Shown here: positions 1,030 through 10,088 of the stretch, one piece after another
Numbering within the stretch: the stretch's first letter is position 1
How the letters are laid out: each line of letters begins with the position of its first letter
NCBI RefSeq assembly: GCF_016786355.1
Contig: NZ_JADWYX010000051.1
Coordinates: 1 to 64,000 of the forward strand
Reading direction: 5' to 3'
Origin: Frankia sp. AgB1.9
GTDB taxonomy: Bacteria; Actinomycetota; Actinomycetes; Frankiales; Frankiaceae
Length of the DNA stretch: 64,000 nt
Notes under the pieces: generated by a model
The model's database searches: none
What the model was told of the DNA's origin: nothing
Seen by the model: only the letters and a program-made list of their open reading frames with translations
Made by a program: the position numbers and the translations under genes

Positions 1030-1956
1030 GTGCGCGTCGCGGGCCGACGGGAACGAATCGGGCCCGGCGGGAGCCGCCACGGGGCAGGCCCGCCGCGCGC
1101 AGACCCGCGCCGGCGCGGCCAGCGGGTGTTCGTCGTCGGCGGCGGGCCGGGCGGCCTGCAGGCCGCGGTCAGCGCGGCCCAGCGGGGCCATCACGTCACC
1201 CTGTTCGAGCGCTCCGACCGGCTCGGCGGGCAGGTCCAGCTCGCGGCCAGCGTGCCGAGCCGGGCCGAGTTCCTCGACATCGTCCGCAACCTGATCGCCC
1301 ACGCGCAGCGGGTCGGCGTCGACGTGAAGCTGTCCACCGACGTCGACGCGGACCTACTGCTCGCCGAGAAGCCGGACGCGGTGATCCTCGCGACCGGGGC
1401 GGCGCCGAACGCGCCCTGGTGGGCCGGCGCGGCCGGGTCGGGCCCGGACCACCGGGTCGTCGACGTCCGCGATGTCCTGGAAGGCCGCGCGGCGCCGAGC
1501 GGGAAGGTCGTCGTCATCGACGAGCTGGGCTTCCACCAGGCCACCTCGGTCGCCGAGCTGCTCGCCGACCGGGGCTGCCAGGTCGAGGTGATCACCAACG
1601 GCATGGTCGTCGGCCAGGACCTGGGCGTCACCCTCGACATGGAGCAGTGGAACGTCAAGGCCGCCGCCCGTGGCGTCACCCAGGCCACCGACCTGGTGCC
1701 GATGGGCGCGGCGCCGGCCGAGCACAGCGCGGGCGTCGTGCTGAACCTGCAGCACCACCCGACCGGCACCGACCAGACGCGGGAGGTGGACTGGGTGGTC
1801 TGCGCGGTGCACCAGCGCGCCGAGGACGGCCTTTACAAGGCGCTGCGCGCGGCCGACGACCTGCCCTTCACCCTCCAGCGGGTCGGCGACTGCCTCTCGC
1901 CCCGCCGCGCGCACGCGGCTGTCGTCGAGGGCCAGCGCGCGGCGGTGAGCCTGTGA
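1030..1956 (+). CDS. Orphan FAD/NAD(P)-binding domain of an OYE/FadH-type oxidoreductase (N-terminally truncated)
   Basis: The protein begins properly at VFVVGGGPGGLQAA (a Rossmann GxGxxG fingerprint near residue 35) and ends with VGDCLSPRRAHAAVVEG. These are the FAD/NAD domain and C-terminal signature of 2,4-dienoyl-CoA reductase-like OYE flavoenzymes, including those linked to mycofactocin loci. Family members are about 650-700 residues with an N-terminal FMN TIM barrel and an iron-sulfur cluster. Here only about 308 residues are open, an in-frame stop lies at 952, and no barrel is visible upstream. It precedes the ETF operon on the same strand, so it may be a relic or a free-standing electron-transfer domain. 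The GTG start is uncertain. Confidence 0.7.
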   Translation: MRVAGRRERIGPGGSRHGAGPPRADPRRRGQRVFVVGGGPGGLQAAVSAAQRGHHVTLFERSDRLGGQVQLAASVPSRAEFLDIVRNLIAHAQRVGVDVKLSTDVDADLLLAEKPDAVILATGAAPNAPWWAGAAGSGPDHRVVDVRDVLEGRAAPSGKVVVIDELGFHQATSVAELLADRGCQVEVITNGMVVGQDLGVTLDMEQWNVKAAARGVTQATDLVPMGAAPAEHSAGVVLNLQHHPTGTDQTREVDWVVCAVHQRAEDGLYKALRAADDLPFTLQRVGDCLSPRRAHAAVVEGQRAAVSL

Positions 1957-2099
1957 GCGCAGGAGTGAGCGAGCGGAGTGGTCGTCCGAGGCACGAGGAC
2001 GGCCGCGAGCAGGGGTCCCCGTTCGGCGCGGATGCGACGAGCGGGGGAGCGATGAGTGAAGCGACGGAGCGAACTAGAGGCATTGTGAGCGAGGGCACA
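1957..2099 (+). other. Spacer with GAGCGA/GAGCGG-type short repeats
   Basis: The 143-base spacer between the reductase fragment and fixB has repeated GAGCGAGCGGAG / GAAGCGACGGAGCGA motifs. Such low-complexity spacers are common in high-GC actinobacteria. An ATG at 2052 within it opens into the fixB frame but encodes low-complexity sequence, so I start fixB at 2100. Confidence 0.4.
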
Positions 2100-3266
2100 A
2101 TGACTGAGATGATCCACGAGACCGACCTCGCCGATCCGGCGGAGATCCCCTCGCTGGCGACAGGCGACGCGGTCCCGCCCGCCATCGCCGGGACCGTCGC
2201 GCTGGTCGTGGCCCGCGGCGGCGCGGTGCCGCCGGGCGGCCCCGAGGCCGCGGCGGAGGCCGGCGGGCGGGTACTCGTCATCGGCTCCGGAGCCGGCGAG
2301 GCTGCCGAGGCGCTACACCGGGCGACCGGCGGCGGACCGGCGACCGAGGTCTGGTGGGCCGACACCGGTCCGGGGCTGCGCGCAGGAGCGCTCGCCGCGT
2401 CGCTGGCACCGGTACTCGCGAACGCGGACCTCGTGGTGCTGCCCGCCTCCGCCGACGGGCGTGACCTCGCGCCGCGGCTCGCCGCCGCCCTCGACGTCCC
2501 CCTGCTGGCCGGCGCGGGCGCGGCGCGGCTCGGCGCCGACGGCGAGATCGTCGCCGAGCTGTCCCGGGTCGACGGGCGGCTGCTCGTCACGGCGACCTGC
2601 GCGGCGCCCGCGGTCGCCACCCTGCTGCCCGGCGCGCGGTCCGTGCACGGCGTGCCCACCGATCCGGTCGCCGCCGCGATCCCGGCCCAACCGGACGGCG
2701 GGCCCACCGCCATCGCGTTGCCGGCCCCACCGGCCGCGCTGGTCGACGTCGAGGTCCTGGAGGTGCTGGAGCCGGACCCGGCGACGATGGACCTCGGCGA
2801 GGCGCGCCGGGTGCTCGGCGGCGGCGCCGGGCTGGTCGCCCGGACCGGCGCGCTCGCGGCGGTCGCGCCGGCGGCGGCGTTCGAGCTGCTCGCGGGCGTC
2901 GCGGCGGCGCTCGGGGCCTCGGCCGGGGCGACCCGGGTGGTCACCGACGCCGGCTGGATGAGCTACGACCGGCAGATCGGCACCACCGGCGTCACCCTCG
3001 ACCCGGAGCTGTACCTCGCGTTCGGGGTCTCCGGCGCGAGCCAGCACACCGGCGGGCTGGGCGCGCCCGGCCACGTCGTGTCGATCAACACCGACCCGAG
3101 CTGCCCGATGACGTCGATGGCCGACCTCGGCCTCGTCACCGACGCGGGCGGCCTGCTGGTCGAGCTCGCCCGCCGGCTCGGCGTCCCCCTCCCGGCCGGC
3201 GTCCCTCTCCCGACCGGCGGAGATGCCGCCGTGCCCGAACCGCGTGGGGAGGCCACGAGTGTCTGA
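2100..3266 (+). CDS. fixB: Electron transfer flavoprotein alpha subunit (FixB-like, mycofactocin-associated type)
   Basis: The 388-residue protein has the ETF-alpha layout: an N-terminal alpha/beta domain, an Ala-rich middle and the conserved C-terminal FAD-binding region, with GASQHTGG near residue 311 and SINTDPSCPM after it. It should pair with the FixA-like protein four genes downstream and pass electrons to FixC. The ATG at 2100 was chosen because conserved sequence follows shortly after it; an ATG at 2109 is an alternative. The gene overlaps fixC by 8 bases, so translation is probably coupled. Assignment to the mycofactocin-associated ETF subfamily rests on remembered family sequence and on the adjacent OYE-type fragment. 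Confidence 0.85.
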   Translation: MTEMIHETDLADPAEIPSLATGDAVPPAIAGTVALVVARGGAVPPGGPEAAAEAGGRVLVIGSGAGEAAEALHRATGGGPATEVWWADTGPGLRAGALAASLAPVLANADLVVLPASADGRDLAPRLAAALDVPLLAGAGAARLGADGEIVAELSRVDGRLLVTATCAAPAVATLLPGARSVHGVPTDPVAAAIPAQPDGGPTAIALPAPPAALVDVEVLEVLEPDPATMDLGEARRVLGGGAGLVARTGALAAVAPAAAFELLAGVAAALGASAGATRVVTDAGWMSYDRQIGTTGVTLDPELYLAFGVSGASQHTGGLGAPGHVVSINTDPSCPMTSMADLGLVTDAGGLLVELARRLGVPLPAGVPLPTGGDAAVPEPRGEATSV

Positions 3267-4575
3267 CGAGAAGGCGCCCGACGTCGACGTGATCGTCGTC
3301 GGCGCTGGGCCGGCCGGCGCGGCGGCGGCGCTGACGGCGGCCCGCGCGGGCGCGTCGGTGGTGCTGCTGGAGCGCGGCCCGTTCCCCGGCTCGAAGAACG
3401 TCTACGGCGGGGTCATCTACGGCCGGATCCTCGACGAGGTGCTGCCGAACTGGTGGGAGGAGGTGCCGGTCGAGCGCTGGGTGGTCCGCCGCTCGACGAT
3501 GATCCTCACCGAGACCCAGGCGCTGACCGTCGACTTCCGCACCCAGGCCTGGGCCGGACCGCCCTACAACGGCATGACCGCCTACCGGGCCGACTTCGAC
3601 AGCTGGCTGGCCGGCAAGGCGACCGCGGCTGGGGCCCGGCTGGTGACGTCGACGGTCGCGACCGGGCTGCTGCGCGACGCCACCGGGCGGGTCGTCGGCG
3701 TGCGCACCGACCGCGCCGACGGCGAGCTGCGGGCCAAGGTCGTCATCGCGGCGGACGGCGTCAACTCCTTCCTGGCCAAGGAGCTCGGCCTGCTGCCGAA
3801 AGCCGAGCCGAAGCACCTCACGCTGGGCGTCAAGGAGGTCCTGTCGCTGGGGCGCGAGGTGATCGACGAACGGTTCGGCCTGCGCGGCTCCGAGGGCCTC
3901 GACATCGAGATGCTCGGCAACACCCGGGGCATCCCGGGCGGCGGCTTCCTCTACACGAACAGCGACACGGTCGCCATCGGCGCGGTGCTCGCCCTGCCGG
4001 GGCTCGCCGCCGCGAAGGTGCGGCCTGAGGAGATCATCGCCGACCTGAAGGGCCACCCGGCGATCGCGCCCTACCTGCGCGGCGCGACGGTGAAGGAGTA
4101 CGCGGCCCACCTGATCCCGGAGGGCGGCTACGACCACATGCCGCCGCTCGCCGCCGACGGGCTGCTCATCGCCGGCGACGCGGCCGGGATGACGCTGGCC
4201 GCCGGGATCTGGCTGGAGGGCGTGAACTTCGCCCTCGGCTCCGGGCTGGTCGCGGGCCGGGTCGCCGCCGAGGCGGCCGCGGCGGGCGACGCGTCGAAGA
4301 AGCGGCTCGGCGCCTACCGCGCCGAGCTGGAGAAGCAGTTCGTCCTGGCCGACCACAAGCGGCTGCGCGGCGCGCCGGAGATCATCCTCTCGGAGCGGAT
4401 CCAGCGCCGCTACCCGGGCCTGATGGCCGACCTGGTCGAGAGCCTGTTCACGGTCACGAACCCGGAGCCGAAGCCGGGCGCGCTCGCCCTGCTGCGCCGC
4501 GCGGCCAAGCGCAACGGCGTCACCCTGCGCGAGCTCGCCAGCGACGGTGTGAAGATCGGAAAGGTGTTCCGTTGA
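3259..4575 (+). CDS. fixC: FixC-like FAD-dependent electron transfer flavoprotein:quinone oxidoreductase
   Basis: This 438-residue flavoprotein starts with a dinucleotide-binding motif (G15-A-G17-P-A-G20) and continues as the FixC/ETF-QO family, including LLIAGDAAG in the second FAD contact. In FixABCX complexes it accepts electrons from the FixAB flavoprotein and passes them to quinone or, through FixX, to ferredoxin at the membrane. The GTG at 3259 was chosen because GGGGAGG lies 7 bases upstream and it overlaps the fixB stop. The stop overlaps the fixX start (TTGA). Function in this organism is inferred from family and operon. Confidence 0.9.
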   Translation: MSDEKAPDVDVIVVGAGPAGAAAALTAARAGASVVLLERGPFPGSKNVYGGVIYGRILDEVLPNWWEEVPVERWVVRRSTMILTETQALTVDFRTQAWAGPPYNGMTAYRADFDSWLAGKATAAGARLVTSTVATGLLRDATGRVVGVRTDRADGELRAKVVIAADGVNSFLAKELGLLPKAEPKHLTLGVKEVLSLGREVIDERFGLRGSEGLDIEMLGNTRGIPGGGFLYTNSDTVAIGAVLALPGLAAAKVRPEEIIADLKGHPAIAPYLRGATVKEYAAHLIPEGGYDHMPPLAADGLLIAGDAAGMTLAAGIWLEGVNFALGSGLVAGRVAAEAAAAGDASKKRLGAYRAELEKQFVLADHKRLRGAPEIILSERIQRRYPGLMADLVESLFTVTNPEPKPGALALLRRAAKRNGVTLRELASDGVKIGKVFR

Positions 4576-5015
4576 GCCGCTTCGGCTTCCGCAAGGCCTC
4601 GGCGGCCGGCGTAGGCGCCAGCCCCACGGCGGCCCCGGACACGGCTTTGGCCGTCCCGGCACCGACACCCCTGGCCCCGACAGCCGCGATGCCACCCGCC
4701 GCGACGGCGTCAACGGCGGCGGGCGAGCGGTATGGCGAGCTGGCGTTCGACGATCGCATGGCGACGGTCGACTTCCGGGTCGGCGAACGGGCACACATCG
4801 TCGTCGACTCCGACGTCTGCCGGTCGTGCACCACCAGGGCCTGCGTCACGGCCTGCCCGGCGGACCTGTTCGCCCCGACCTCCGACGGCGGCATCCTGTT
4901 CAACTACGAGCAGTGCTTCGAGTGCGGCACCTGCTACCAGGTCTGCAACGGCGAGGGCGCGATCACCTGGACCTATCCCGACGGCGGCCACGGCGTCGTC
5001 TTCCGCCAGGGCTGA
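4572..5015 (+). CDS. fixX: FixX-like ferredoxin with extended N-terminus
   Basis: The C-terminal 85 residues are a FixX ferredoxin: Cys83, 86, 91 and 95 (CRSCTTRACVTACP), then Cys115, 118, 121 and 125 (CFECGTCYQVC), and the typical ITWTYPDGGHGVVF end. Usual FixX is about 95 residues. Starting at the TTG coupled to the fixC stop gives 147 residues, with an Ala/Pro/Thr-rich tail of about 50. ATG codons at 4689 and 4758 would give shorter, more typical forms. The protein would carry electrons between FixC and an external acceptor. The start is the main uncertainty. Confidence 0.88.
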   Translation: MSRFGFRKASAAGVGASPTAAPDTALAVPAPTPLAPTAAMPPAATASTAAGERYGELAFDDRMATVDFRVGERAHIVVDSDVCRSCTTRACVTACPADLFAPTSDGGILFNYEQCFECGTCYQVCNGEGAITWTYPDGGHGVVFRQG

Positions 5016-5019
5016 GGGC

Positions 5020-6108
5020 ATGAGCGTGCACACGAACGGACCGTCCCCCGTCACCCCGTCCTCCAGCAGCCCGGTCCCGCGGGCCGCGCCGCCGGCCCCC
5101 GACGACACCTCGGGTGGGCCGCTCGTCGCGGTCTGCCTGCGGGTGGCCGACCTGCGGCCGCAGGTCGACCCGCTGACCGGCGCGCTGACCCAGTCCGCGC
5201 ACGGGGTGGGCCTCTCGGCCGCCGACGAGGCGGCGCTGGAGCGGGCGCTGACCATCGCCGAGGCCTGGTCGGGCCGGGTGCTCGCGCTGGCCGCAGGGCC
5301 GCCGATCGTCGACGGACCGCTGCGCGCCGCCTCGGCACTCGGCGCCCGGCCGCTGCGGGTCGCCTGGCCGCCCGCCGAGCCCGCGGCCCACGGCGGCCCG
5401 GGGCACGGCCACGACATCCCTGACCAGCGCGACCCCGAGCCGTTCGGCCCGGCCTCCCAGTACCTCGCGGACGTCGCCGGCGACACCCGCGCGCTGGCCG
5501 TGGCACTGGTGGACGCGATTCGCGCGGTCGGCGAGCCGGCCCTGGTCCTCTGCGGCGACCACTCCCCCGACCGCGGCACCGGCGCGCTGCCCGCGCAGCT
5601 GGCCGACGCTCTCGGTGCCGCGCAGGCGCTCGGCCTCGTCGACCTGCGCGTCGAACCCCAGCCGGTCGGCGAGCCCCGCGAGGTCGGCGACGCCCAGCAG
5701 GTCGGCGAGCGCCGGCTGCTCGGTGAGCGCCGGCTCGACGGGGGGCGCCGGGAGCGGCTGCGGATCCCGACGCCGGCGGTGTGCTCGGCCGAGGCGGCCG
5801 GCGTCCGGCTGCGCCGCGCGTCGCTGCCGGCGCTGCTCGCCACCGGCGACGCCGCGGTCCCGGTCGTCGAACCGGCCGGCGCCGCGGACCTGGCCGGCGC
5901 GGTCCGGGTCGAGTCGGTCCGCGCCTATCGCCCGCGTACCCGGGTGGTCCCGCCACCGGCCGGCGCGACGCCCCGGGACCGGCTGCTCGCGCTGACCGGC
6001 GCGCTCGTCGCCCACGAACCTCCCATGATCGTCGGGCCGGCCAGTGCGGCCGAGGCCGCCGACGCCCTGCTGGCCTACCTCACCCGCGCCGGCTACCTGA
6101 CCGACTGA
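5020..6108 (+). CDS. fixA: Electron transfer flavoprotein beta subunit (FixA-like, mycofactocin-associated type)
   Basis: The 362-residue protein opens with an ETF-beta fold (AVCLRVADLRPQVDPLTG), has VLCGDHSPDRGTG in the nucleotide-binding region and ends with RRASLPALL. It lies 4 bases after fixX, so the order is B-C-X-A rather than the usual A-B-C-X. Residues about 216-239 are an insertion of four six-residue repeats (VGEPRE/VGDAQQ/VGERRL/LGERRL) encoded by an 18-bp tandem repeat. The His/Gly-rich HGGPGHGHD stretch around residue 125 is also unusual. It should form the FAD/AMP-binding heterodimer with FixB. Confidence 0.83.
   Translation: MSVHTNGPSPVTPSSSSPVPRAAPPAPDDTSGGPLVAVCLRVADLRPQVDPLTGALTQSAHGVGLSAADEAALERALTIAEAWSGRVLALAAGPPIVDGPLRAASALGARPLRVAWPPAEPAAHGGPGHGHDIPDQRDPEPFGPASQYLADVAGDTRALAVALVDAIRAVGEPALVLCGDHSPDRGTGALPAQLADALGAAQALGLVDLRVEPQPVGEPREVGDAQQVGERRLLGERRLDGGRRERLRIPTPAVCSAEAAGVRLRRASLPALLATGDAAVPVVEPAGAADLAGAVRVESVRAYRPRTRVVPPPAGATPRDRLLALTGALVAHEPPMIVGPASAAEAADALLAYLTRAGYLTD
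5665..5736 (+). repeat. Four 18-bp tandem repeats inside fixA
   Basis: Units begin at 5665, 5683, 5701 and 5719, each starting GTCGG or CTCGG. They keep the frame and insert four six-residue units into a loop of the ETF-beta protein. This is probably slippage-generated length variation. Confidence 0.8.
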
Positions 6109-6235: not shown

Positions 6236-6631
6236 ATGAAGCAGGACGAGCTTGTGTCCGCGATCCGCGTGACCGGCGGCTTCGCGTCGGCGGGGCAGGC
6301 CGAGACGGCGGCCCGAGCCACCCTCACGGTCCTCGGGGAACGGCTCTCCGGCGGCGAGACCCGGGACCTCGCCGCCCAGCTACCCGCCGCGTTCGCCGAG
6401 GCGCTCCCACCGGTCGGCGCCGGCGAGCGGTTCGACGTGAACGAGTTCTACCGGCGGGTCGCCTCGATCGAGGGTGACTCGTGCACGGCGCCCAAGGCCC
6501 GCCGTCACGCCCGCGCGGTCGTGGCGGCGCTGAAGGCCAGCGTCTCGCCGGCGGAGTTCGAGGACGTCGCGGGCCAGCTCCCGGGCGACTACGCCGACCT
6601 GCTCAGCCGCGAGCCTGTGATCCACTACTGA
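6236..6631 (+). CDS. DUF2267 domain protein
   Basis: The 131-residue protein fits DUF2267: MKQDELVSAIRVTGG at the start, an LxxRLSGGE-like segment, AAQLPAAFAEALPP, FDVNEFYRRVA, and a second half ending LPGDYADLL. Members are small helical proteins of unknown function, often stress-associated in actinobacteria. The ATG at 6236 follows a GAGGCGG ribosome site. It stands alone between the fix operon and the Cas6-like gene. Confidence 0.82.
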   Translation: MKQDELVSAIRVTGGFASAGQAETAARATLTVLGERLSGGETRDLAAQLPAAFAEALPPVGAGERFDVNEFYRRVASIEGDSCTAPKARRHARAVVAALKASVSPAEFEDVAGQLPGDYADLLSREPVIHY

Positions 6632-6896
6632 GGGCGTCCGAGCGGTCGTCGTCGGACCGACGTAACGGTCCCGTCGTCGCGGGTTAAATTTCCGCCGATA
6701 GCATTTCTTTGGGGCCGCCAGCCGCGTATTCGGACGAACGGGTCGGGGACGGGACGGTCGGGCGCAAAACAGTCGTTCTCCCTTGAAAACCGGTTTCGAC
6801 GTCGTGCCACGGCGACCCCAGCTACCGCGTCGGTGACGTGGTCGGCTACGCTCCCCGCCTGCGGGGCGACGGATCGTAGAAGACTGGTCGCCGACC

Positions 6897-7754
6897 GTGC
6901 GGGACCGATGGCGGAGGCTTCGGATGCCGTCGATGCTTGTGCTCCGGTTGGCTGGTGCCATTCCGGACGTCGCCCCACGCTGGCTGCTCGGCGCGGCCAG
7001 CGCGATCTGCGAGCCGGGCGTCGGCGAGGCGCCCACCCAGGCCCGGCCGTTCAGCGTAGGCGCCGTCGTGCCCGTCGTCGTCGAGGACGCCCGCGTGCCC
7101 GTGGCGTCCTGGCGGCTGGGCTGGCTGGATGACGACGCCCCGCCACCGGGCTGGCCGCCGGCCGAGGTCCGGTTCGGCTCCCGGGCCCGGACCGTGCTGG
7201 CCGCCGAGCTGCACCGCCGGTCCTATGCCGAGCTCGCGCAGGGCACCCCGGCCCGCCACGTCCGGCTGACGATGACCACCCCGACCTTCTTCGCCCTGGA
7301 CGGTCGCGACCTGCCGCTGCCCGACCCGGCACTGATGATCCGTGGCCTGCTGGCCCGGTGGAACAGCTACGCGCCCGGCCCGCTGCGGATCGGTGCCGAC
7401 GACGCCAGTGCGCTCGTCGACGCGGTCTACCTCGACGGGATGTGGGGCGCGAGCGCCGACGTCGAGCTGGGCCACGGGCTGCGCCAGACCGGCTTCGTCG
7501 GCCAGGCCGATCTGCGGCTGCTGGCCGCCACCTCGGACTACAGCGCCACGATGTTCACCGCGCTCACCCGGTTCGCCGCCTACGCGGGAATCGGCGCCAG
7601 GACCGCCTACGGGTTCGGCGCCGTCGACGTCGACATCGTCGACGTGCCCGTCCCACGGCGCCCGGTAACCGCGGCCGCGTCGGCCGGTCCACGCCACGCG
7701 GGAACTCTCACCTCGACGCGCCCACCCCGGCTGGCCACCTCTCCACTGACCTGA
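6897..7754 (+). CDS. Orphan Cas6-like RAMP protein
   Basis: The middle (LTMTTPTFF, then LPDPALMIRGLLARWNSYAP) and the C-terminus (TGFVGQADLR..., GIGARTAYGFG) match the Cas6 pre-crRNA endoribonuclease family, including the terminal Gly-rich RNA-binding loop. Cas6 enzymes cut CRISPR repeat RNA and normally have a catalytic His in the N-terminal third. Counting from the GTG start, the first His here is residue 106, so a conventional catalytic His is missing. No CRISPR repeat array or other cas gene is visible in the window. ATG codons at 6924 and 6933 are alternative starts. It is convergent with the LuxR-type gene, 12 bases apart. Confidence 0.72.
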   Translation: MRDRWRRLRMPSMLVLRLAGAIPDVAPRWLLGAASAICEPGVGEAPTQARPFSVGAVVPVVVEDARVPVASWRLGWLDDDAPPPGWPPAEVRFGSRARTVLAAELHRRSYAELAQGTPARHVRLTMTTPTFFALDGRDLPLPDPALMIRGLLARWNSYAPGPLRIGADDASALVDAVYLDGMWGASADVELGHGLRQTGFVGQADLRLLAATSDYSATMFTALTRFAAYAGIGARTAYGFGAVDVDIVDVPVPRRPVTAAASAGPRHAGTLTSTRPPRLATSPLT

Positions 7755-7766
7755 CCCGTCCAGGCG

Positions 7767-10088
7767 TCACGGCGCGTTGCTGCCGGCCCGGTCGAACAGG
7801 TGCAGGCGATGGGCGACCGCGGCCGCCTCGCCGCGGGTCGCGACGCCGAGCTTGCCGAGGATGTTCGAGACGTGCGTGCTCGCCGTCTTGCGGCTGATGA
7901 ACAGCGCCGAGGCGATCTGCGGGTTCGAGCTGCCCGCCGCGACGAGCCGCAGCACCTCCAGCTCCCGGGCGGTCAGGCCGAGCGGCGGCCCGTCCGCGGC
8001 GCAGGTCTCGGCGTCGCCGCCGGTCAGCCCGTCGACCGGCTCGCCGGGGCCCGACAGCACGACCCGGGCCGCGACGGCGAGCTCGCCGAGCTCCCGGCGC
8101 AACAGGTGGGCGCCCAACTCGTCGGCGATCGCCGCGGCGGCGCGCAGCTCGGCAGCGGCGGCGGCCCGGTCGCCGACGGCCAGCAGCGACTCGGCCAGGC
8201 CACGCAGCGCGCAGGCGCGCTGGTAGGTGACGCCGAGCGCGCCCCAGGCCTTCGCCGCGCTCGCCCAGGCGCCCGGATCCGCGCCGCCCTGCGCCCTGGC
8301 CAGCTCGCCGGCGACCATCGCCCGGAAGGCCTCACCACTGGGGTACCGCTCGAACGGCAGCTCGGCGGCCACCGCCGCGAGCCGCCCGGCACCGTCCAGC
8401 GCCCGGCGCAGACCCTCGGCGTCGCGCCGGACCCGGGCCACGACCGCGGCCTCGGCGGCCGCCGCCATCCCGGCGGCCAGCAGCGGCGCGACGTAGCGGA
8501 CCACGTCCGGCAGGTCGAAGTGCGCCAGCGTCTCGAGCACCCGGTCGGCCACCGCGCCCGGATCGCCGCGGCGCAGCTCCAGCTCCGCCCACAGCCGGGC
8601 CGACGGCAACACGTACTGGCTGTCGACGAACCTCTTGGCGCGCAGGCTGTCGGCCGTGGCCAGCGCCGTCGCGGCCTCGTCAAGGCGGTCCCGGACCAGC
8701 GCGACCTCGCCGCGCAGCTCGCTGAGGAACATCGCGTTGATGCCGACCGGCACCAGCTCCGCGAGCTGGGCCAGCATCCGCTCGGCCTCGGCCCAGCGGC
8801 CGGCGCCGATCATGGCCTCCACCACGTTGCCAGCGATGATCATGCTGGCCCGTTCCTGGCCGAGCCGCCGGGCCAGCCGCAGGCCCTCCTGCCCGACGAG
8901 GATCGCCTCGTCGAACCGCCAGGCGCCCAGCCAGGTGTCGGACTCATGGGTGTAGCTCGCGAGGATCAGATCATCGGCACCCAGCTCGACGGCGATCTCC
9001 CGGCCGCGACGCACGTCGATCGGCTCGCCCCAGACCGGGGCCAGGCAGTCCGAGCTCAGCAGCGCCGACGCCTCGGCCCGGCGGGCCCCTGTCGCGCGGG
9101 CGACCGCGAGCGCCTCGTCCATCGCGGCCTGGCCGGCGGCCCGCCGCGGGACCGACGAGAACGCCTTGCCCAGGGCGACGAGCACCGCGGCGCGTGCCGG
9201 CGTCGGCGGCTGCGCCGGCACCAGCCGGACGGCCTCCTGCGCCTCGGACACGCCGTCGGAGCGGCCCAGCTTGCGCTGCAGCCTGCTCTGCTCGGTCAAC
9301 ACCAGCGCGAGCCGCACCGGGTCGCCGAACCGGCTGGCCTCGACTCGCGCCCTGGCCAACAGCTCGTCCTCGCGACGCAGCTCGCCTGCCGTCCTGGCGG
9401 CCAGGATCGCGGCCTCCAGAATGGCGAGGCGGTCCTTGCCGGTCAGCGCGCCCGGATCCGCGACCTCGTCCCAGCTCGCCATCGCCCGTTCGTAGTGGCG
9501 CAGCGCCTCCGCGTAGGCGTAGGAGCATTCCGCCGCCTCAGCCGCGTGCAGCAGCGCGGGCAGGGCCCGGACATGATCGTGGGCCGAATACCAGTGGTAG
9601 GCCACCGTCGCCGCGGCCTGCGCCGGGCCGCCGACCAGGCACGGGTCAGCCTCGACCGCCTGCGCGTAGCGGCGGTGCAGGTGCTTTCCCTCGCCCGGCA
9701 GCCCGTCGTCGTGCAGGGCGTCACGGGTCAGCGCGTGCCGGAACGCGTACCCGCCCGCGTCCTGGTCGACCAGCAGCACCCCGGCGGCGACGGCGGCCCG
9801 CAGCGCCTCCCACACCTGCTCGTCCGAGAGCCCGGCGACGGCGGCGAGCAGCCGGTGGGCAACCCGCTGGCCGCCGGCCGCCGCGGCCCCCCCCCCCCCG
9901 GCGGGGGGGGGCCCCCCCCCCCGGCCCCCCCCCCCCCCGCGGGCCCCCCGCGGGGCCCCCCCGGCGCCGTTCGCGGGTGCGTCACCCGCTAGGCCGCCGC
10001 CGCGCGGTGCGCCGCCCGTGGCGGTGTCGACCCGCGCCACGGTACGCACTGGGAGGACCCGTCGAGACGACGTCGTCTGATCGGTCAT
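7767..10088 (-). CDS. LuxR-family transcriptional regulator, N-terminal ATPase missing at a homopolymer block
   Basis: The C-terminus carries a LuxR helix-turn-helix (GLTARELEVLRLVAAGSS...TASTHVSNILGKLGV). Before it is a long helical TPR-like region, beginning at LLAAVAGLSDEQVWEALRAA, typical of large AAA/LuxR (LAL or MalT-like) regulators. Such proteins have a Walker-type ATPase of several hundred residues at the N-terminus. Here the first 40 residues lead directly into a Gly/Pro/Ala run encoded by C/G homopolymers at 9887-9962, exactly where the ATPase should be. I read this as a collapsed or mis-filled assembly gap. The given frame stays open only because the block has no A or T. Confidence 0.7.
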   Translation of the reverse strand: MTDQTTSSRRVLPVRTVARVDTATGGAPRGGGLAGDAPANGAGGAPRGARGGGGGRGGGPPPAGGGGAAAAGGQRVAHRLLAAVAGLSDEQVWEALRAAVAAGVLLVDQDAGGYAFRHALTRDALHDDGLPGEGKHLHRRYAQAVEADPCLVGGPAQAAATVAYHWYSAHDHVRALPALLHAAEAAECSYAYAEALRHYERAMASWDEVADPGALTGKDRLAILEAAILAARTAGELRREDELLARARVEASRFGDPVRLALVLTEQSRLQRKLGRSDGVSEAQEAVRLVPAQPPTPARAAVLVALGKAFSSVPRRAAGQAAMDEALAVARATGARRAEASALLSSDCLAPVWGEPIDVRRGREIAVELGADDLILASYTHESDTWLGAWRFDEAILVGQEGLRLARRLGQERASMIIAGNVVEAMIGAGRWAEAERMLAQLAELVPVGINAMFLSELRGEVALVRDRLDEAATALATADSLRAKRFVDSQYVLPSARLWAELELRRGDPGAVADRVLETLAHFDLPDVVRYVAPLLAAGMAAAAEAAVVARVRRDAEGLRRALDGAGRLAAVAAELPFERYPSGEAFRAMVAGELARAQGGADPGAWASAAKAWGALGVTYQRACALRGLAESLLAVGDRAAAAAELRAAAAIADELGAHLLRRELGELAVAARVVLSGPGEPVDGLTGGDAETCAADGPPLGLTARELEVLRLVAAGSSNPQIASALFISRKTASTHVSNILGKLGVATRGEAAAVAHRLHLFDRAGSNAP
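9887..9962. other. C/G homopolymer block, probable assembly artefact
   Basis: About 76 bases consist only of runs of C and G up to 16 long, unlike any neighbouring sequence. They replace the expected ATPase-coding part of the LuxR regulator. A similar block occurs at 50903-50941. Confidence 0.75.

What the first reader, a model, noticed from the sequence alone, without database searches (positions are those of the whole stretch)
6897..7754. Lone Cas6-like protein lacking an N-terminal catalytic histidine
The RAMP core and terminal Gly-rich loop are good, but there is no His before residue 106 and no CRISPR array or cas neighbour. It may be a repurposed RNA-binding or RNase protein.
Basis: partly seen in the sequence, partly recalled or inferred. 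Interest (0 to 1): 0.6.

Follow-up and report, generated by a model that had tools for sequence, protein, structure and literature searches.

The report
Orphan Cas6 without its catalytic histidine
A soil actinobacterium and its whole genus carry a lone descendant of the CRISPR RNA-cutting protein Cas6 that has lost its cutting site but kept its RNA-binding body, which suggests that an immune protein has been put to another, still unknown, RNA-related use.

Summary
Window 6924-7754 encodes a Cas6-family protein (Pfam CRISPR_Cas6 62.9 bits, cut-off 25; AlphaFold pLDDT 84.5, VIA Z 25.7 to Thermus Cas6A). No cas gene or array lies near it. 8 of 8 Pseudofrankia genomes carry it; in 7 of 8 it follows a DUF2267 gene. 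Its nearest relatives mostly sit in type III CRISPR loci and keep a [DE]H...K motif whose His aligns with catalytic His37 of Cas6A. In Pseudofrankia the His column reads A,A,A,H,P,R,R,R and the Lys is gone in 8 of 8, while 35 of 45 columns conserved in relatives are kept in all 8. Core dN/dS is 0.37, catalytic loop 0.85. Two single-contig genomes (EuI1c, DC12) have the gene but no Cas1, RAMP or Cas3 over cut-off. A hairpin in 7 of 7 aligned leaders is a candidate ligand. Best reading: an exapted, probably non-cutting Cas6 RNA-binding protein; function and ligand untested. Against: one ortholog still has a His there; the window's genome has a type III-D system elsewhere, with its own Cas6.

The parts
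6924..7754 (+). Orphan Cas6-family gene (276 aa from ATG 6924; an in-frame ATG also at 6933; the GTG 6897 start is less likely)
   Evidence: PF10040 62.9 bits; MPS start and GGAGG conserved in orthologs; AlphaFold model
7017..7061 (+). Former catalytic loop (residues 32-46): the [DE]H...K motif of relatives is replaced (E35, A36, R41)
   Evidence: columns w35, w36, w41; alignment of the relatives' His to Cas6A His37
7473..7475 (+). His184, fixed in 8 of 8 Pseudofrankia and absent in 15 of 15 relatives; at the turn between model strands 168-183 and 186-199
7587..7619 (+). Gly-rich loop (residues 222-232, GIGARTAYGFG), glycines retained; the second Thr of relatives is Ala/Ser in 8 of 8
7638..7751 (+). 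Arg/Pro-rich C-terminal tail (residues 239-276), long in Pseudofrankia orthologs whose end is sequenced, short or absent in Protofrankia and Pseudonocardiaceae relatives; low confidence in the model
6852..6905 (+). Conserved hairpin in the region before the gene (16-19 pairs in each of 7 orthologous loci): candidate cis RNA ligand, or a DNA/attenuation element
6913..6917 (+). GGAGG ribosome-binding site, 6 nt before ATG 6924
   Evidence: conserved
6236..6631 (+). DUF2267 gene upstream; present next to the gene in 7 of 8 Pseudofrankia
   Evidence: PF10025 E 4.8e-33
5020..6108 (+). Mycofactocin-associated electron transfer flavoprotein beta subunit gene (conserved neighbourhood, not claimed to work with the Cas6-like protein)
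   Evidence: TIGR04503 E 1.2e-119
7767..10088 (-). Convergent gene of a large regulator with a LuxR-type HTH (conserved neighbourhood)
   Evidence: PF00196

Best explanation
A cas6 gene of the Frankiaceae type III (RT-Cas1) kind stayed behind in the ancestor of Pseudofrankia without its CRISPR locus, and was then passed on vertically as a stand-alone gene. Shown: homology, fold, the orphan state in every genome held, loss of the catalytic His-Lys motif, retention of the core and purifying selection on it. Inferred: the protein no longer cuts (or cuts very poorly) and works by binding a short RNA stem-loop through its tandem RRM domains and Gly-rich loop. The first candidate ligand is the conserved hairpin just before its own start codon, whose binding would throttle its own translation; further cellular RNA targets are unknown.
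For: Gene in 8 of 8 Pseudofrankia genomes, one clade in the tree (97/99), with DUF2267 beside it in 7 of 8 and synonymous divergence like its neighbours', so vertical. No cas gene or array in the fetched DNA of any Pseudofrankia ortholog locus. 12 of 15 relatives have cas genes in the fetched DNA. Of 45 columns with the same residue in at least 14 of 15 relatives, 35 are kept in 8 of 8; Lys41 and Thr228 are kept in 0 of 8, His36 and Asp35 in 1 of 8. His36 column = Cas6A His37 by profile alignment. dN/dS: core 0.37 (0.29-0.47), catalytic loop 0.85 (0.46-1.67). No internal stop in 8 of 8, where simulated neutral drift puts one in about 69-86% of lineages at 0.13-0.25 substitutions per site. The relatives' CRISPR repeat start GTTTCTATGCCC occurs in 0 of 8 genomes. 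Two single-contig genomes (lengths equal to EuI1c and DC12) keep the gene without Cas1, RAMP or Cas3 over cut-off. Leader hairpin: all 7 aligned leaders fold into one hairpin of 16-19 pairs; alifold energy below all 500 column shuffles, z -4.15; covariation score reached by 2 of 500 shuffles.
Against: L032 (G004) still has His in the catalytic column. His184 is new and fixed, so a moved active site is possible. Sulfolobus Cas6 cuts without a His. dN/dS of the gene is higher than for fixC and DUF2267 in most pairs. The window's genome has a type III-D locus with arrays on contig C22 and another Cas6 with arrays on C242. The hairpin evidence is soft: single-sequence z-scores run from -1.83 to +0.17, 606 of 2000 random 54-mers of this GC-rich window also fold into one hairpin of 16 or more pairs, column shuffling overstates z, and a TANNNT hexamer at 6847-6852 could be a -10 box whose start point would cut the hairpin. 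In G007 the model finds no such hairpin near the gene.
Confidence: 0.5

Rival explanations
1. It is still an endoribonuclease, with a rebuilt active site (new His184, or a basic-residue network as in Sulfolobus Cas6), now cutting a cellular RNA.
For: His184 is one of only 5 columns fixed in 8 of 8 Pseudofrankia and absent from 15 of 15 relatives; it lies at a beta-hairpin turn in the model. Sulfolobus Cas6 lacks the His and is active (PMC3652601, passages).
Against: The Lys of the old site is lost too, and the catalytic loop evolves almost freely. Whether His184 is near bound RNA could not be measured: no coordinates were returned.
Confidence: 0.2
2. It processes or loads crRNA in trans for CRISPR systems elsewhere in the genome.
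For: Most type III systems take Cas6 in trans (PMC12669027, figure-legend passage). G000 has type III-D arrays; G003 and G006 have full-length Cas1, and G003, G004 and G007 Cas3 over cut-off.
Against: The type III-D locus has its own Cas6 with an intact LHDDPPPKPY motif. G002 and G005 have the gene but no Cas1, RAMP or Cas3 over cut-off. The ancestral repeat start is absent in 8 of 8. The catalytic motif is lost.
Confidence: 0.1
3. It is a decaying relic with no function.
For: Catalytic loop and tail evolve with dN/dS near 1 (0.85, 0.72); relatives in Protofrankia show broken frames (L041, L042).
Against: No internal stop in 8 of 8 genomes (two orthologs run off contig ends); core dN/dS 0.37 with upper bound 0.47; start and ribosome-binding site conserved in 7 of 7 aligned leaders.
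Confidence: 0.12
4. It is a dominant-negative decoy: it binds the repeats of related type III systems carried by plasmids or rivals and blocks their crRNA maturation.
For: Broken catalytic motif with a kept RNA-binding core; relatives occur in type III-B loci on Streptomyces plasmids.
Against: No interaction was shown; no viral contig relative (50 candidate stretches, 0 confirmed) and no sign of a defence island around the gene in the genes annotated here.
Confidence: 0.08

Closest known systems
Cas6 of Frankiaceae / actinobacterial type III loci (Protofrankia coriariae L067, Frankia canadensis L065, Streptomyces L029/L077)
   Same: Same family by descent, same core and Gly-rich loop; 47-51% identity for L067 and L065, 34-36% for the Streptomyces ones
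   Different: They keep [DE]H...K and lie next to cas1, cas2, RAMPs or cas10 genes; the window gene has neither
Thermus thermophilus Cas6A (TTHA0078; 4c8y, 4c97) and Cas6B (TTHB231)
   Same: Closest solved folds: VIA Z 25.7, rmsd 2.2, 219 residues; profile E 5e-30
   Different: Thermus Cas6A has His37 (H37A mutant solved as 4c97); the window protein has Ala in that column
Sulfolobus solfataricus Cas6 (Sso1437)
   Same: Cas6 lacking the canonical His (passages)
   Different: An active crRNA-processing enzyme that uses basic residues; 9-11% identity between the window model and the Sulfolobus Cas6 entries as I recall them (4ilm, 3zfv)
Non-catalytic Pyrococcus furiosus Cas6 (PfuCas6nc, 3ufc)
   Same: Cas6 fold called non-catalytic in PMC3652601 (passage); VIA Z 15.3
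   Different: A paralog of an active Cas6 in the same archaeon; whether it is ever a genus-wide orphan was not looked at

Membership tests
Cas6 protein family (by descent) | Match to Pfam PF10040 over its gathering score | tested here: met
   62.9 bits, cut-off 25
Cas6 protein family (by descent) | NCBIfam TIGR01877 cas_cas6 equivalog over its cut-off | tested here: not met
   29.8 of 58.65 bits; two relatives from CRISPR loci also miss it (30.3, 33.1), so it does not separate them
Cas6 protein family (by descent) | Tandem RRM (RAMP) fold | tested here: met
   AlphaFold pLDDT 84.5, pTM 0.79; Z 25.7 to 4c97
Cas6 protein family (by descent) | Terminal Gly-rich loop | tested here: met
   Glycines kept in 8 of 8
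Working CRISPR Cas6 endoribonuclease | Catalytic His (Cas6A His37 column) | tested here: not met
   Ala in the window; 7 of 8 orthologs not His, L032 His
Working CRISPR Cas6 endoribonuclease | Lys of the catalytic motif | tested here: not met
   Arg in the window; Lys in 0 of 8 Pseudofrankia, 15 of 15 relatives
Working CRISPR Cas6 endoribonuclease | Linked array or cas operon | tested here: not met
   None in the window or in any Pseudofrankia ortholog locus fetched; arrays exist elsewhere in G000
Working CRISPR Cas6 endoribonuclease | Cleavage of pre-crRNA repeats | not testable with these tools
   Needs purified protein

The most novel reading that the evidence does not exclude
A Cas6 freed from CRISPR has become a core-genome RNA-binding regulator of a bacterial genus, with a new cis hairpin ligand in its own leader and a new fixed His that may be a moved active site: an exaptation of a single cas gene for normal cell RNA metabolism.
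Probability: 0.3. Interest if true: 0.8.

Novelty: new variant of a known kind. Interest (0 to 1): 0.6.

Why it matters
The exaptations of CRISPR parts told in the passages I read concern mostly derived systems taken up by mobile elements, or crRNAs and repeats (PMC8730458, abstract and passages). A single cas6 kept by a whole genus away from any CRISPR locus, with the cutting motif broken and the RNA-binding core under selection, would be a natural experiment on what a Cas6 can do for a cell apart from immunity, in strains (EuI1c, DC12) where the CRISPR genes we searched for were not found.

Tried and rejected
Mobile origin: no viral contig encodes a relative (50 candidate stretches, 0 confirmed). 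Regulon of the hairpin: model R1 found the cas6-like leader in 7 of 8 genomes and one further hit below E 1e-3 (G004:C1:7957419, E 1.1e-5); that hit and two weaker ones in G001 (E 0.0032, 0.0147) fall on the antisense strand of called genes, so I read them as chance in GC-rich DNA; a weaker G006 hit (E 0.07) overlaps a called ORF near its start.

Vestige of the ancestral CRISPR repeat upstream of the gene: a conserved CGGTTTC block in the intergenic alignment shares only a few bases with the relatives' repeats; rejected as too short.

Empty site in Parafrankia (g6): DUF2267 orthologs there lack the mft_etf neighbours, so no clean empty site could be defined.

Rows dropped: from the 15-relative set I left out L070 and L072 (N-terminal part out of frame), L081 (run of N inside), L083 (cut at contig start) and L084 (distant). 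L033 and L036 run to contig ends; L036 was cut to 241 codons. Tree labels score L032 as motif-lost because D and K are gone, although its His is present; with His alone scored, the loss would need more than one change or a regain.

Limits: PF03787 rang in only 4 of 14 control genomes, so absence of RAMP matches is not absence of every type III part. G001 has a weak Cas3-like match (56.7 bits, below cut-off). PMC9680954 Table 1 (passage) lists 1 CRISPR for EuI1c and 2 for DC12, which I could not locate. Cas9, Cas12 and Cas13 were not searched. G000 has an estimated contamination of 5.23%, so its C22 and C242 loci could be foreign; not checked. The last search (asked for the order) returned the same 35 genomes as the family searches.

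Papers: searches listed nothing that I recognised as describing an orphan Cas6 in Pseudofrankia; I read only listings, abstracts in the listings, and passages.

Full report
What is there. The ORF at 6897-7754 (+) encodes a Cas6-family protein. The start is probably ATG 6924, 6 nt after GGAGG; an upstream ATG at 6908 is out of frame here but in frame in several orthologs. Pfam PF10040 matches at 62.9 bits (cut-off 25). A model built from 19 sequences (window plus 18 proteins of related-loci loci) has mean pLDDT 84.5 and pTM 0.79. The best VIA matches are Thermus Cas6A structures (Z 25.7, rmsd 2.2, 219 residues, 29% identity).

Where it lives. The window is contig C225 of a 9.79-Mb genome. The genus has 8 held genomes, and 8 of 8 carry an ortholog. 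The named records found among them are Pseudofrankia, Frankia nepalensis and a Frankia MAG; the contig lengths of G002 and G005 equal the genome sizes given for EuI1c and DC12. I call the genus Pseudofrankia on this ground. A DUF2267 gene lies beside the gene in 7 of 8, and the fixC-like and luxR-like neighbours are found in 6 of 8; in G003 the contig is too short to tell, and in G007 the DUF2267 gene is on another contig. Within the family, 15 of 35 genomes have a match: all 8 of this genus, 5 of 5 of g7 (Protofrankia and kin), 1 of 13 of g2 (Frankia canadensis), and G022 weakly.

Relatives are CRISPR proteins. Of 15 relatives used, 12 have cas genes (RT-cas1, cas2, RAMPs or cas10) in the fetched DNA, L075 has only an array-like repeat near a contig end, and L066 and L068 have neither. 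The P. coriariae locus has Cas10/Cmr2 and a reverse transcriptase-Cas1 fusion. All 15 have His in the column that aligns with His37 of Thermus Cas6A, and Lys five residues later. None of the Pseudofrankia loci has a cas gene by the same search.

What was lost and kept. Of 45 columns in which at least 14 of 15 relatives agree, 35 are identical in 8 of 8 Pseudofrankia. The His column reads A,A,A,H,P,R,R,R; Asp35 is kept in 1 of 8; Lys41, Thr228 and Leu28 in 0 of 8; Glu30, Pro47, Pro74, Arg125 and Ala225 in 4, 2, 6, 5 and 4. So the catalytic motif is broken in all, but one ortholog (L032) keeps the His itself. Five residues are fixed in Pseudofrankia and absent from relatives: Asp126, Ala136, Ile139, His184, Met210. 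The Pseudofrankia sequences form one clade (97/99).

Selection. Pooled over four pairs, dN/dS is 0.37 (bootstrap 0.29-0.47) in the core, 0.32 in the first strand and helix, 0.85 (0.46-1.67) in the catalytic loop, 0.72 in the tail. No ortholog has an internal stop. The core is thus held by selection, though the gene as a whole is held less tightly than fixC or DUF2267 in most pairs.

Is it a Cas6 in trans? The window's genome has a type III-D locus on C22 (Cas10, Csx10-like, Cas7 and Csx19 matches by PADLOC) with its own Cas6 keeping LHDDPPPKPY, and another Cas6 with arrays on C242. G003 and G006 have full-length Cas1 in loci whose gene order looked to me like types I-C and I-G (by eye); G003, G004 and G007 have Cas3 over cut-off. 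But G002 and G005, single-contig genomes, show no Cas1, no RAMP protein and no Cas3 over cut-off, and the relatives' repeat start is found in 0 of 8 genomes. A published table counts 1 and 2 CRISPRs in these two strains; I could not find them.

A possible ligand. The 54 nt at 6852-6905 and their counterparts in 6 other loci each fold into a single hairpin of 16-19 pairs. The alignment's consensus fold is better than 500 of 500 column shuffles (z -4.15), with three pairs changed on both sides. Against this, random 54-mers here often fold (606 of 2000), single-sequence z-scores are weak, and a TANNNT hexamer at 6847-6852, if a promoter, would start transcription inside the hairpin. The model finds the hairpin at this gene in 7 of 8 genomes and nowhere else convincingly. 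I offer it as a lead.

Conclusion. The finding is a real, genus-wide, vertically inherited orphan Cas6 whose cutting motif is broken and whose RNA-binding body is kept. It is a Cas6 by descent; it is not shown to be a working Cas6. The most likely mechanism is stem-loop binding without cutting, with autoregulation through its leader as the first thing to test.

Noticed in passing
L049 (G000:C22:20000-39900) and G000:C22:22271-61268: Type III-D locus with its own Cas6 and many short GTTTCAATCC arrays spread over about 40 kb; Cas1 was not found in this genome.
   Followed up: partly
L050 (G000:C242:24000-43900): A Cas6 gene with several GTTTCAATCC arrays; my queries found no effector gene nearby.
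   Followed up: partly
L066 (G032:C13:1-13065), match 2370-3083: A second copy of the same Cas6 type in Candidatus Frankia meridionalis with no cas gene found nearby, but with DHH...K intact; it lies 2.4 kb from a contig end.
   Followed up: partly
L041/L042/L070/L072: Orthologs in cluster-2 Frankia whose N-terminal part is out of frame: they look like decaying copies, in contrast to Pseudofrankia.
   Followed up: no
window 1030-6108: Mycofactocin-associated ETF genes (TIGR04503 beta subunit) with an FAD oxidoreductase gene next to the orphan Cas6.
   Followed up: no
L073 (Saccharomonospora sp. NB11): Type III locus with RT-Cas1, two sets of one repeat flanking it and another repeat array nearby.
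   Followed up: no
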